In this document: one piece after another, positions 2,101 through 6,287 of the stretch
Numbering within the stretch: the first letter of the stretch is position 1
Layout of the letters: every line of letters begins with the position of its first letter
From: Spelaeicoccus albus
GTDB lineage: Bacteria > Actinomycetota > Actinomycetes > Actinomycetales > Brevibacteriaceae
Direction: 5' to 3'
DNA: 64,000 nucleotides
Assembly (NCBI RefSeq): GCF_013409065.1
Contig: NZ_JACBZP010000001.1
Location: 434,001 to 498,000 of the forward strand
Notes under the pieces: model-generated
The model's database searches: none
What the model was told of the DNA's origin: nothing
Seen by the model: only the letters and a program-made list of their open reading frames with translations
Position numbers and translations under genes: made by a program

Positions 2101-2574
2101 TCAGCCGATGTTCCATCCCGTCGACCGAGTACTCCAGAGATGGATGAGCCTATCCTCTTCATCGACGATGAGGTCACGGGGCAACTCGCGAAGCCAGTGC
2201 TGGACTGTGCGCCCGGCGTCGACCTGCTGTGCGATCAGCGCGTTGACGCGCTTGCGCGTCACGCCGGCGTGACGGGGCTTTCCGTAGCGCTGCCCGCCTC
2301 GCGCTCCCCCGCTGTGCGGCAGGTGCCCCTTCGTGACCATCCACAGATGAGTCGTGAGACCGACGTAGGCAACATGAACGACGTCGCCGTCGCCGATCGT
2401 GAAAAGGTAGACCCCCGCAGAGTCGGGCACCTGCCCGAGCGTGGCCCACTCGATGCCAGTGCCGCCGGGCCATTCAACATGCTGTCCGAAGTCGAGGTCG
2501 TGCGGTACGAACCCGAGGGCGATGAGGTCTTCGGGCTCGACCAGGGTTCCAGGCAAGGAAGTAGATTCCGCCAT
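2101..2574 (-). CDS. GIY-YIG-like endonuclease domain protein
   Basis: 157 aa from the ATG at 2572-2574; an in-frame GTG at 2602-2604 would add ten residues. The order AGVYLFTI, then AYVGLTTHLW, then a basic stretch with RKRVNAL, then EED and a terminal TGWNIG follows the GIY-YIG plan: the two strands with Tyr and Tyr-Val-Gly, a helix Arg, the metal-binding Glu and a late Asn. The two strand motifs are degenerate (GVY and YVG). GIY-YIG nucleases occur as restriction enzymes, homing enzymes and repair nickases. Placement downstream of vsr suggests a DNA-processing role in the same island, but this is inference. Confidence 0.6.
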   Translation of the reverse strand: MAESTSLPGTLVEPEDLIALGFVPHDLDFGQHVEWPGGTGIEWATLGQVPDSAGVYLFTIGDGDVVHVAYVGLTTHLWMVTKGHLPHSGGARGGQRYGKPRHAGVTRKRVNALIAQQVDAGRTVQHWLRELPRDLIVDEEDRLIHLWSTRSTGWNIG

Positions 2575-2709
2575 GTCGTCTAGTGTCCCACTTTCGGCAC
2601 GCACGCTGTCCGCGACGATCGACAGATAACCATCGCACGATAAATGGCCGCTGACCGACGAACACCTCGAACGGCCTGGCTCCGCTGATCATGCAAGCGA
2701 GTCAGGACA

Positions 2710-3222
2710 TCACGACTGGCCTCGCATCTCCTTAACGGTCTTGGCAACGAGGTCAGCTGCCAAGACAGGCGACTCGTGCTCCCACACGCGCAAGACTGTC
2801 CACCCCGCATCCGCGAGCCGCGCGTCCGTGTCCGCGTCCCGCTCCCGGTTCCGCGCGATCTTGCCCGACCAATAGCCGGGGTTCGATTTGGTCTCCCGCC
2901 GACTGTGCTCAGGACAGCCGTGCCAGAAGCAGCCGTCTACGAAAACGGCGACCTTCGCAGGTCCGAACACGATGTCTGCTCTGCGCCGCCACCCGCGCAG
3001 CGGGGAGCGGTCTACGCGGTAGCGCAGGCCCATCGAATGAAGTATGCGGCGCAATGCCATCTCTGGGGCCGTGTCGCGCGTGCGCTGCAGTTGCATCCGG
3101 CTGCGAACGCCTGGTGTCGACGCGTACGAGCCAGACAGGGACGTGCCGCGCCGGGTGCGCCCCCCGGACACTGGCCCTCCCGTCACGGACTCATTCTCCC
3201 GCGAGCCTCCCACAAACGCCAT
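2710..3222 (-). CDS. vsr: Very short patch repair endonuclease Vsr
   Basis: Vsr nicks next to T:G mismatches that arise when 5-methylcytosine made by a partner methyltransferase deaminates. Diagnostic segments are RTRDTAPEMALRRILHSMGL near the start of the domain, RADIVFGPAKVAVFVDGCFW and HGCPEH (metal and zinc ligands), and GWTVLRVWEH near the end. The residue after VWE is His where E. coli Vsr has a zinc-binding Cys. The chosen ATG at 3220-3222 gives 170 aa; the frame stays open to 3261, and a later start nearer the domain is possible. It is divergent from the HNH gene and about 0.8 kb from the C5 methyltransferase, the expected partner. Confidence 0.9.
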   Translation of the reverse strand: MAFVGGSRENESVTGGPVSGGRTRRGTSLSGSYASTPGVRSRMQLQRTRDTAPEMALRRILHSMGLRYRVDRSPLRGWRRRADIVFGPAKVAVFVDGCFWHGCPEHSRRETKSNPGYWSGKIARNRERDADTDARLADAGWTVLRVWEHESPVLAADLVAKTVKEMRGQS

Positions 3223-3245
3223 GCTAGCTGCGAGAGCGTTACAGG

Positions 3246-3998
3246 ATGGACGAAACTTCACTAAACAAGCGGCGGAACCCGGCGTGGGCCCGCGAAGAGA
3301 TCATCCTGGTGGCAGAGGCGGTAGCTGCCAACAGCTGGCACGAGCTCAGAACCGGCGATGCCGAAGCACGAGAACTGTCGAAATTGCTGCAGAAACTCGA
3401 CATACATCCAGTCGACGCACGCCCTCACGACTTCCGGAGCCCCGGTAGCGTCTCACGGAAGACGTCGGACATTATGACTGCTCACTCGGCATACTCAGGC
3501 GTGCGGACTAAGGGCGGCGCGTTGACGCGCGAGGTCGTCCAAGAATTCGAGTCCGATCCGAGCGGCATGGTCGCCCAGGCGGAGTACGTGCGCGAGCGTG
3601 CGACTGAGGGTGGGGCCCTTCCGTCGTCAGGTCGCGTCGTCGATCCCGATCTAGGCGTCCCAGCGTCTGAAGGGGGCGTCCGCGAGCGAGCACACCTAGC
3701 CAGGGAGCGGGATAAGCGAATCAGGAAGGCGAAGATAAACGCAGTCCGTGCCGCAGGCGGGGCGATCGAATGCGAAGTGTGCGGGTTCAACTTCGGGGCC
3801 GCCTACGGCAACCGGGGGCATGGGTATATCGAAGTCCATCACCGCGTGCCGCTGCACGTGTCGGGCCCGACCGAGACTTCGCTTGCCGACCTCGCACTGC
3901 TGTGTTCCAACTGCCATCGGATGATTCACCGCGCACATCCCTGGCTGACGGTCGAGCAACTCAGCGAGATTGCCTCCGAGGGCCAGGAGACTAGCTGA
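3246..3998 (+). CDS. HNH endonuclease of the restriction locus
   Basis: 250 aa. The C-terminus is an HNH domain with CEVC (about 176-179), EVHH (196-199) and CSNCH (220-224), giving zinc Cys pairs and the catalytic His. The N-terminus (NPAWAREEIILVAEAV, then FRSPGSVSRK) matches the N-terminal module common in HNH restriction proteins, which begins NPxW and later has a 'FRNxxGVxxK'-like segment. It runs convergent with the methyltransferase gene and overlaps its 3' end by 8 bp; its start is only 23 bp from the vsr start on the other strand. It could be a second, perhaps modification-dependent, restriction nuclease; target unknown. Confidence 0.85.
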   Translation: MDETSLNKRRNPAWAREEIILVAEAVAANSWHELRTGDAEARELSKLLQKLDIHPVDARPHDFRSPGSVSRKTSDIMTAHSAYSGVRTKGGALTREVVQEFESDPSGMVAQAEYVRERATEGGALPSSGRVVDPDLGVPASEGGVRERAHLARERDKRIRKAKINAVRAAGGAIECEVCGFNFGAAYGNRGHGYIEVHHRVPLHVSGPTETSLADLALLCSNCHRMIHRAHPWLTVEQLSEIASEGQETS

Positions 3999-5304
3999 TC
4001 TTCGAGCGCAGCTTGTCCGTGGCGAACGCCGCGTGGCGGGCATGGTCTTCCTGGCCCCGGAACGCACGCCACTCACCCAGCCGGTAAGTGGGCACTTTGC
4101 CACGGCGGCGCACCTCAATCTCGAAGTCCTGTCTGAGAAACTCGATCCGGTGCTCGATATCGCTGTCGGAGAGGCCGCCACCGAGCGCCTTGTGCAGGCC
4201 AGCGATCGAGATGAATCCGCCATGCTCCCGCAACGCCCGGTATACCTCGTCACGGTACTTGCTGTCCCCGCCGTGGTCGCCTGCCCGGCGGCCCTCTTTG
4301 CGGAGCGCCGTGGCAATCGCGAGCCCAACCGCGCGCGCCACCGGCGGAGGAAACGCGTTGCCGATCTGGCGGTAGGTTGCCGTCTTGTGGCCTTTGCGGT
4401 CGCCGAAGTCCCATTCGTAACCGGGGCCCGCCCACCCCTGGATTCGCGCTACCATCTCGTTCGTCAGCTTCGGGGCGAGGCCGACGGGCGCATCAGGGCC
4501 AGGAGCCGCGTCTGCGATGCCCAATCCGTCAACACCTATTGACCGCCACTCACGCTTCGCGCGGGTCGGACCCAGATCGGGGCCACCGTGCTTCTTGGAG
4601 CCGCCGACGATGGTCGGGGCCACTCGGTCGGCGCGCTTCGACCAGGTCTCCGCACCCTTCCAGCCGTTCGCGGCCATCAGGTCGTAGAGCGCAGCACCCA
4701 CGGTCTGCACGGCTGGAGTTGGCTCGGGCCAGGCGAAGTACGGAGCGAACTCTTCGCGGAGAGCGACGAGAATAAAACGGGGCCGCAGCTGCGGAACGCC
4801 GAAGTCCTTGGCCTCAAGCAGCCGCCAGTCGGCGCGGTATCCCAGCTCGGCGAACCGATCGAGCACTGCCTGCCGGTACCCGGCGAAGCGCGGCATCGAC
4901 AAGCCACGAACGTTCTCGAGCAATACAGCATCGGGCTGCATCTGAGCAGCCGCCTCTACTGCCCACGCGAACAGATCCCGCTCGTCGGACGATCCCAACT
5001 GCTTACCGGCGATCGAGAACGGCGGGCATGGCACGCCGCCCGCGAGCAGCGAGACTCCCTTGTATTCCGCGGGCTGCCATACTGATTCGTCTGCGACGTC
5101 GCCGACGGCGACCACCGGCTCCGGCTGGCCCTCGTCAGAAGCCAGGCGGGCCAGGTTTCGCTGTAGAGTCTCTGCCGCGTCCCGATCCAGCTCAACAGCG
5201 AGCGTGTGCCTGAAGCCCGCCAGGTGGAGGCCGAGGCTCTGGCCCCCCGCCCCGGCGCAGATCTCAACCGCTGTCAGCTCAGTAGTACTCGTGGTCCCGT
5301 CCAT
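3991..5304 (-). CDS. DNA (cytosine-5-)-methyltransferase
   Basis: 437 aa. It transfers methyl from S-adenosylmethionine to C5 of cytosine. Motif I is CAGAGGQSLGL (about 16-26), motif IV is GVPCPPFS with catalytic Cys93, motif VI is ENVRG (130-134), motif VIII RPRF, and motif X QIGNAFPPPVA. After motif X there is an extra 85-residue tail containing YRDEVYRALREHGGFISIAG and KVPTYRLGEW that reads like a winged-helix module. It lies 50 bp downstream of the NaeI-like endonuclease on the same strand, so R precedes M in one operon. By association it should protect the NaeI-like site, which in NaeI is GCCGGC. Confidence 0.95.
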   Translation of the reverse strand: MDGTTSTTELTAVEICAGAGGQSLGLHLAGFRHTLAVELDRDAAETLQRNLARLASDEGQPEPVVAVGDVADESVWQPAEYKGVSLLAGGVPCPPFSIAGKQLGSSDERDLFAWAVEAAAQMQPDAVLLENVRGLSMPRFAGYRQAVLDRFAELGYRADWRLLEAKDFGVPQLRPRFILVALREEFAPYFAWPEPTPAVQTVGAALYDLMAANGWKGAETWSKRADRVAPTIVGGSKKHGGPDLGPTRAKREWRSIGVDGLGIADAAPGPDAPVGLAPKLTNEMVARIQGWAGPGYEWDFGDRKGHKTATYRQIGNAFPPPVARAVGLAIATALRKEGRRAGDHGGDSKYRDEVYRALREHGGFISIAGLHKALGGGLSDSDIEHRIEFLRQDFEIEVRRRGKVPTYRLGEWRAFRGQEDHARHAAFATDKLRSKIS

Positions 5305-5354
5305 GATGATTCATTCTGACAGATGCCACCGACACGGCCGGGACTCGCGCTGAT

Positions 5355-6287
5355 TTATGCGCGGCTTGGCCGGTACCAGAGGGGGTCAAACGCCTCGCGG
5401 CCGTTCGAATCCACCGCCCTCAGGGCCAGTCCCGACGGTCCGCGTGCGACGCGGCCGGGCCAGTCTGCCGGTGCGGGAGCCACGTATGCGGCGACGTATT
5501 CCGTCCGGAGCGGGACAGGGAGTCCGAGCTCACGCGCAGCCTCCCGCTGCCAGTCATAGGCTCCGCCGAGGATCACGATGCCTTCAGACGCCAGTGGGTC
5601 CCGCGATCCGCTCTGGCCGCCCCGGACGCGCCGGGTGACATCGAGCTGCGCAGCGACGGTCGCTACGGATGCCCGGCCGACGATCTTCCCTGCCGTGCGC
5701 CGGAACAGCTCGGATACACGCGCGGTGCCGCCACCGGCCGCGAATACTGCGGCCACGTCTTCCTCGCGCATGTGCAGCAGAGTGTTCGGTGGCAGCTCAG
5801 CGTCCTTCCGCAGCCAGGCGATCATTGACCTTCCGGCTGCGGAGAGCGTGCGCTTTGCGTCTCTGTTCCGTCCTCCATTGAGCAGGTCTTCCGACGCCCG
5901 GACTACGCCGACTGAGAACTGTGACCTCTTGTCGCTGGCGGTGACAACCATGCAGAGCTCGCCAATGGCCTCTGGCGGGAGCATCCAGCCGCCCGAACTC
6001 TGACTATACTTCGCGTCGACTTCGTGGCCCGCGATGCAATAGTCCAGCTTCATTCCGTCGGCGTACTCGAACTCGCGCTGGAGGTTGATCTCCACGAGCG
6101 TCCCGAAGTGCGTCTTCTCGGTCTTGAACAGCTGGTCCCACCGGTACCTCCGTGTCCGGACGCCGTCGTAGAGCTGGTCGAAGGTGTCACGCAGGACCTG
6201 TCCCGTTATCATCGCGTCAGGATCAAGGCGCTCCATCTCGCGCATAACGCCGTCGCGAGCGGGGTCATCAGGGAGGCCAAGAGTCAC
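5355..6287 (-). CDS. NaeI-type type IIE restriction endonuclease
   Basis: 310 aa from a GTG at 6285-6287 with no strong ribosome binding site; the start agrees with the family N-terminus. The arrangement RDTFDQLYDG, then KTEKTHFGTLVEINL, then a D-x8-DAK core matches NaeI. E66, D82, D91 and K93 sit at the same spacings as NaeI E70, D86, D95 and K97. The LYDG at 39-42 corresponds to the NaeI Leu43 motif that resembles a DNA ligase active site lacking its lysine. NaeI must bind two copies of its site to cleave. A C-terminal DNA-binding domain (about 165-310) follows, with NELFRR-type and VIATV-type segments. Specificity is inferred only. Confidence 0.9.
   Translation of the reverse strand: MTLGLPDDPARDGVMREMERLDPDAMITGQVLRDTFDQLYDGVRTRRYRWDQLFKTEKTHFGTLVEINLQREFEYADGMKLDYCIAGHEVDAKYSQSSGGWMLPPEAIGELCMVVTASDKRSQFSVGVVRASEDLLNGGRNRDAKRTLSAAGRSMIAWLRKDAELPPNTLLHMREEDVAAVFAAGGGTARVSELFRRTAGKIVGRASVATVAAQLDVTRRVRGGQSGSRDPLASEGIVILGGAYDWQREAARELGLPVPLRTEYVAAYVAPAPADWPGRVARGPSGLALRAVDSNGREAFDPLWYRPSRA

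What the first reader, a model, noticed from the sequence alone, without database searches (positions are those of the whole stretch)
2101..6287. NaeI-like restriction operon packed with three further nucleases
Seen: a NaeI-type endonuclease and C5 methyltransferase in one operon, a convergent HNH protein overlapping the methyltransferase by 8 bp, then divergent vsr and a GIY-YIG-like gene. Known: Vsr repairs T:G mismatches caused by C5 methylation. Inference: HNH and GIY-YIG proteins could be extra restriction or nicking activities against the same or a modified site. Four nuclease types around one methyltransferase is unusual.
Basis: partly seen in the sequence, partly recalled or inferred. 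Interest (0 to 1): 0.62.

Follow-up and report, generated by a model that had tools for sequence, protein, structure and literature searches.

The report
NaeI-type restriction locus with extra nucleases
This is a bacterial DNA-defence locus: a NaeI-type restriction enzyme with its protecting methylase and a mismatch-repair helper, a known kind of set, next to an HNH nuclease that turns up beside this methylase in several other bacteria, and a fifth gene that appears to be an unrelated neighbour.

Summary
The core is a solid NaeI-type R-M system: the REase is about 50% identical to NaeI with its PD-(D/E)XK residues kept, beside a full-length C5 methyltransferase. Vsr is its usual repair companion: it occurs at 35 of 78 other NaeI-type loci, 31 times within 500 bp of R or M. 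The HNH gene is probably not a chance neighbour. Its family is at 5 of 78 other NaeI loci (full length in Microbacterium, Gordonia and Streptomyces; reader domain only in two). In Microbacterium it has the same convergent overlap with the 3' end of M. Other HNH families occur near 23 loci; some lack the catalytic His, and some sit beside C5 methylases without NaeI. The GIY-YIG-like gene is at none of 78 loci and its relatives sit beside no C5 methylase of this kind; I read it as a bystander. All five genes together occur only here; Gordonia has R, M, Vsr, this HNH and a second HNH. Best reading: a NaeI R-M-Vsr set plus an HNH endonuclease with an uncharacterised helical DNA-reader domain, most likely a Type IV-like or second-line nuclease. 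Its substrate is untested. Interest is modest.

The parts
5355..6287 (-). NaeI-type (Type IIE) restriction endonuclease, 310 aa
   Evidence: Pfam NaeI E 8.3e-100; PDB 1ev7 NaeI E 9.3e-72; E66, D82, D91, K93 and D41-G42 of the LYDG stretch invariant in the alignment with NaeI and homologues
3991..5304 (-). C5-cytosine DNA methyltransferase (M.NaeI-type), 437 aa with a ~90-aa C-terminal extension
   Evidence: Pfam E 4.4e-50; PADLOC MTase_II PDLC03304 matched over 8-437, E 1e-230; motifs GVPCPPFS (from 90), LLENVRG (128), QLRPRF (172), GNAFPPP (315); 72 of 78 NaeI loci carry a relative
2710..3261 (-). Vsr-type T:G mismatch endonuclease; the real start may lie downstream of 3261
   Evidence: TIGR00632 E 5e-35; E. 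coli Vsr 1cw0 E 1.3e-14; GCFWH (from 110), D of RADIVF (94) and W of GYWSGK (129) conserved
3246..3998 (+). HNH endonuclease, 250 aa: all-helical N-terminal domain (about 11-120) plus HNH/zinc domain (about 146-246); convergent with the MTase, 8-bp overlap
   Evidence: Pfam HNH E 1.1e-8; EcoKMcrA 6ghc HNH domain; CEVC (from 176), EVHH (196), CSNCHRMIH (220); AF2 model pLDDT 77; homologues aligned
2101..2604 (-). GIY-YIG-like protein, 167 aa; probable bystander
   Evidence: motif-level only; relatives G057, G001, G178 at 47-55% identity in alignment A4; absent from 78 NaeI loci

Best explanation
Shown: a NaeI-type Type II R-M pair with its usual Vsr companion, with an HNH endonuclease at the 3' end of the MTase. 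Inferred: R cuts unmethylated GCCGGC, M protects the same site as 5mC, and Vsr nicks T:G mismatches left by 5mC deamination there. The HNH gene is a recruited, largely autonomous nuclease. Its helical N-terminal domain reads a DNA site or a modification and its HNH domain cuts. It most likely acts as a Type IV-like or second-line restriction activity against DNA that R cannot cut, such as foreign-modified DNA. The GIY-YIG-like gene is an unrelated neighbour.
For: R and M by family and structure matches. Vsr is next to R or M in 31 of 78 loci. The HNH family is enriched at NaeI loci, 5/78 against 3/365 whole genomes, p=0.005 even though 16-kb neighbourhoods are compared with whole genomes. Same convergent slot in Microbacterium L023: 4-bp overlap, HNH 68% and M 77% identical. 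Autonomy: homologues without this MTase nearby in Nocardia, Rhodococcus, Priestia and G218. Reader role: the N-terminal domain also occurs alone (L016, L091) and ahead of a PD-(D/E)XK-like tail in G113 (my reading of the sequence). Best PADLOC match is mREase_IV, E 7.6e-9, over the HNH part only. GIY absent from all 78 loci.
Against: Nothing shows that the HNH reads modified DNA. The N-terminal domain has no Pfam match and only weak Myb/SANT-like structure matches, Z 4-5. The position of the central HNH Asn reads Asp (D215, judged from the alignment to the HNH consensus). A 5mC-dependent nuclease beside a 5mC methylase would have to avoid the host's own marks; such a conflict is documented elsewhere (PMC8989522). 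GCCGGC specificity is inferred from about 50% identity to NaeI.
Confidence: 0.5

Rival explanations
1. The HNH protein is a second restriction enzyme for the same (or a nested) unmethylated site and is protected against by the same MTase, giving one methylase with two cutters.
For: HNH genes of two other families sit directly beside C5 MTases in genomes G146, G038 and G161, which gave no NaeI match; in G038 the set is MTase + Vsr + HNH with no other obvious nuclease. HNH families converge on the 3' end of M with overlaps of a few bp. In window and Microbacterium L023, M and HNH are closer than R is (77 and 68% against 55%).
Against: The window's own HNH family mostly occurs without this MTase (L005, L006, L007, L113), which a cognate cutter could not do safely. 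Its nearest M relatives (L021, L048, L077, L022) lack it.
Confidence: 0.22
2. Chance cluster: Vsr belongs to R-M, while HNH and GIY are independent genes in a defence island.
For: HNH is missing from most NaeI loci; GIY from all. NaeI loci lie in gene-rich defence neighbourhoods with DISARM-like and helicase genes.
Against: Family-level enrichment of three HNH families at NaeI loci and the matching convergent slot in L023. The enrichment compares NaeI loci with whole genomes, so defence-island clustering is not fully controlled.
Confidence: 0.18
3. The N-terminal domain is a DNA-binding controller of R-M expression, like a C protein, and the nuclease part is secondary.
For: Nuclease-less copies of 145 and 111 aa lie next to R (L016) and just upstream of M on the same strand (L091). 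About half of the second HNH family at NaeI loci has lost the catalytic His.
Against: The window's copy keeps the zinc cysteines and the first and last HNH histidines; the 8-bp overlap with M is at the 3' end, not at a promoter.
Confidence: 0.08
4. All five genes form one functional anti-phage system.
For: They are adjacent in the window.
Against: 0 of 78 other NaeI loci have all five; GIY relatives lie elsewhere.
Confidence: 0.02

Closest known systems
NaeI Type IIE restriction enzyme (PDB 1ev7, 1iaw; PMC4081073)
   Same: 51% identity over the aligned part; E, D, D-x-K active-site residues kept
   Different: C-terminal ~35 residues unaligned; specificity and two-site requirement untested here
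Vsr of E. coli (PDB 1cw0) and Vsr genes linked to C5 MTases (PMC12907096)
   Same: Vsr subfamily, catalytic and intercalating residues conserved, adjacent to a C5 MTase
   Different: serves a NaeI-type R-M pair instead of solitary Dcm; target context untested
EcoKMcrA (NEco-HNH; PDB 6ghc; PMC7145662)
   Same: HNH domain with Cys4 zinc site, two-domain reader + HNH layout
   Different: the N-terminal domain is predicted all-helical, whereas NEco is described as distantly similar to I-DreI and MotA; no sign of its 5mC pockets
SBD-HNH and SRA-HNH modification-dependent nucleases (SprMcrA, ScoMcrA, TagI; PMC7461809, PMC6212794)
   Same: reader domain fused to a C-terminal HNH domain
   Different: no SBD or SRA match in Pfam; the N-terminal domain is a separate sequence family
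PcaRCI/PcaRCII of Pectobacterium (PMC8989522)
   Same: C5-MTase R-M system and an HNH nuclease in one genome
   Different: there the HNH is silenced by the MTase; here they are overlapping neighbours and the HNH substrate is unknown

Membership tests
NaeI-type restriction endonuclease (PF09126) | sequence similarity over both NaeI domains | tested here: met
   Pfam E 8.3e-100 over residues 14-275; 1ev7 over 6-273
NaeI-type restriction endonuclease (PF09126) | PD-(D/E)XK catalytic residues | tested here: met
   E66, D82, D91, K93 invariant with NaeI and homologues
NaeI-type restriction endonuclease (PF09126) | cleavage of GCCGGC with activation by a second site | not testable with these tools
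   needs biochemistry
C5-cytosine methyltransferase of an R-M system | C5 motifs I, IV (PC), VI (ENV), VIII, X and a neighbouring REase | tested here: met
   R 50 bp upstream
Vsr | Vsr subfamily score and catalytic/intercalating residues | tested here: met
   TIGR00632 above cut-off; alignment to 1cw0
Vsr | nicking at T:G mismatches in the cognate MTase site | not testable with these tools
   needs biochemistry or mutation spectra
HNH endonuclease | HNH/zinc motif | tested here: met
   Pfam HNH E 1.1e-8; CxxC...HH...CxxCH...H present; central Asn position is Asp
McrA-like Type IV (NEco-HNH) | NEco-type N-terminal domain with 5mC pockets | tested here: inconclusive
   profile alignment to 6ghc spans part of NEco weakly; predicted all-helical fold; structure match only over HNH
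McrA-like Type IV (NEco-HNH) | cleavage that depends on modification | not testable with these tools
   needs assay on modified DNA
SBD-HNH / SRA-HNH | SBD or SRA reader domain | tested here: inconclusive
   no such Pfam family matched in the window's HNH or its homologues; a miss does not exclude it
GIY-YIG nuclease | GIY...YIG motif with catalytic R and E | tested here: inconclusive
   GVY/YVG and WN conserved in four sequences, but E not kept in all; no family match; no usable model

The most novel reading that the evidence does not exclude
NaeI-type C5-methylase loci hold a modular 'HNH slot' at the MTase's 3' end. Unrelated reader-HNH proteins occupy it repeatedly, some active, some with a dead HNH and some reduced to the reader domain, and they couple the methylation state to a second cut or to regulation of the R-M genes.
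Probability: 0.25. Interest if true: 0.55.

Novelty: new variant of a known kind. Interest (0 to 1): 0.33.

Why it matters
If the HNH partner acts with the NaeI-type methylase, one methylase would be guarding against two cutters, or a restriction locus would carry its own answer to modified phage DNA. The nuclease-dead and reader-only versions would make it possible to separate the DNA-reading role from the cutting role. If the HNH is independent, the locus is an ordinary R-M-Vsr set in a defence neighbourhood.

Tried and rejected
A single-protein scan of genome contigs with R found nothing; the alignment A1 was too diverged for patterns; A2 gave 73 loci. NEco identity of the HNH reader was considered: the profile hit to 6ghc is driven by the HNH part, the model is all-helical and only the HNH part aligns in structure. 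SBD/SRA identity was considered; no Pfam support. Homology between the MTase C-terminal extension and the winged-helix part of other HNH proteins: HMM E 0.004 and HHalign probability 33%, not claimed. The Foldseek search gave no hit at E <= 0.001. The AlphaFold model of the GIY-like protein failed. Viral scans with HNH and GIY gave nothing; no phage matches for R or GIY. GCCGGC is not clearly avoided in the window: 157 found, 166 expected. No tRNA or Rfam family in the window. In the literature library I found no paper on Vsr or HNH at NaeI loci; most subscription papers are not held.

Full report
The window lies at 434001-498000 of a complete 4.03-Mb actinobacterial genome. Two search handles of the same family coincide in length and position with Brevibacterium sp. 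CS2 (G425/L052) and B. luteolum (G415/L072), so the host is probably in Brevibacteriaceae but in a different genus. The five ORFs are present at the stated coordinates. R and M are co-directional with a 50-bp gap, HNH converges on M with an 8-bp overlap, and Vsr and the GIY-like gene follow on the minus strand.

R is a NaeI-type enzyme: Pfam NaeI E 8e-100, solved NaeI 1ev7 E 9e-72, with the four catalytic residues invariant in an alignment with NaeI and three further homologues. The 'LYDG' stretch that contains NaeI's Leu43 (my knowledge of NaeI) is kept, so no topoisomerase-like change is expected. M is a C5 methyltransferase with its motifs intact and a full-length match to a Type II MTase model. 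It has a C-terminal extension of about 90 aa that is shared by one clade of 21 MTases in the census. Vsr is above the curated NCBIfam cut-off and keeps the catalytic and intercalating residues of E. coli Vsr. GCCGGC specificity and the T:G target are inferred, not shown.

Census. A scan of 84,980 species gave 73 NaeI-type loci; with others, 78 loci besides the window were examined. A C5 MTase is within the fetched flanks in 72 and Vsr in 35 (24 genera), 31 of them within 500 bp of R or M. Vsr is thus an ordinary companion of this R-M type, not an oddity.

HNH. The window's HNH has an N-terminal domain of about 110 aa and a C-terminal HNH domain. The family occurs at five other NaeI loci: full length in L023 (Microbacterium, 68% identity), L042 (Gordonia) and L081 (Streptomyces); N-terminal domain alone in L016 and L091. 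In L023 the HNH overlaps the 3' end of M by 4 bp, convergently, as in the window. By comparison the domain was found in 3 of 365 other genomes of the phylum; one-sided Fisher p = 0.005, with neighbourhoods of about 16 kb set against whole genomes. This control does not remove the effect of defence islands. Two further HNH groups, one with a winged-helix-like N-terminus (14 loci) and one with HNH between two such parts (9 loci), occur at NaeI loci; their background is 2 and 1 of 187 genomes. Members of the latter also converge on and overlap the 3' end of M, by 4-35 bp, with one 6-bp gap. In the first group about half have lost the catalytic His of the HNH motif. The three background copies of these two groups (L110-L112) lie next to C5 MTases of this broad type.

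The window's family is different in that respect. Outside NaeI loci it was next to a C5 MTase only in a Psychrobacter plasmid with a SinI-type REase (L008), and without this MTase in L005, L006, L007 and L113. A cognate restriction enzyme would not be safe without its methylase, so an autonomous role, Type IV-like or modification-directed, is the more likely reading. The N-terminal domain appears alone and ahead of a PD-(D/E)XK-like tail (G113), which fits a DNA-reading module. Structure prediction (five sequences, pLDDT 77) gives an all-helical N-terminal domain whose structural matches are weak and Myb/SANT-like (Z 4-5), and an HNH domain like those of Cap5, EcoKMcrA and TagI. It is not a demonstrated member of the NEco, SBD or SRA families.

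Evolution. In the MTase tree the window groups with L077, L048, L021, then L023 and L022, but only L023 shares the HNH. R reassorts: L048 M is 82% identical to the window's while its R is nearest to L061 (79%); L023 R is nearest to L044. The family's HNH or reader domain appears in several separate branches, so it has been gained or lost repeatedly.

GIY-like gene. An HMM from the window and three relatives finds it in no NaeI locus except the window. The relatives (G057, G001, G178) have no C5 MTase of this type nearby, and one is fused to DUF7669. It is best treated as a bystander; its GIY-YIG identity rests on motifs only.

Literature. An R-M system and an HNH Type IV nuclease in conflict are known from Pectobacterium (PMC8989522); a Vsr-like protein with a YGCCGGCR methylase from Caulobacter (PMC12907096); Vsr and HNH genes in R-M operons with MORC ATPases (PMC2292703); stand-alone occurrence as a sign of modification dependence is used in PMC11037411. 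I found no report of the HNH association with NaeI-type loci in the library searched.

Verdict. The R-M-Vsr core is a known kind; the recurrent HNH neighbour is a moderate novelty of unknown substrate.

Noticed in passing
L011, L025, L045, L070, L077 (also L112, without NaeI): A module of SNF2-type helicase, ParB-like protein and a winged-helix HNH protein with a lost catalytic His recurs near this C5 MTase and Vsr; it looks like a larger defence system.
   Followed up: partly
L019, L026, L084, L091: DUF1998, helicase and NERD-domain genes resembling DISARM lie beside NaeI-type R-M genes.
   Followed up: no
window:3991-4269 (MTase residues 345-437): NaeI-type MTases come in two lengths; one clade of 21 has a ~90-aa C-terminal extension with a winged-helix look; weak similarity to the N-terminus of one HNH group, not significant.
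   Followed up: partly
L048, L077, L023: R and M reassort between NaeI-type loci: M 77% or more identical to the window's while R is only 48-55%.
   Followed up: partly
L114:6261-8693: The HNH family's N-terminal domain is followed in one ORF by a PD-(D/E)XK-like stretch (G113).
   Followed up: partly
L110:7919-10440: C5 MTase with a wH-HNH-wH gene and an adenine-glycosylase-like gene in a row, no NaeI.
   Followed up: no
L115 / L100:1469-2317: A relative of the GIY-like protein is fused to DUF7669; wH-GIY-YIG Type IV enzymes are reported in PMC11037411, a possible lead.
   Followed up: no
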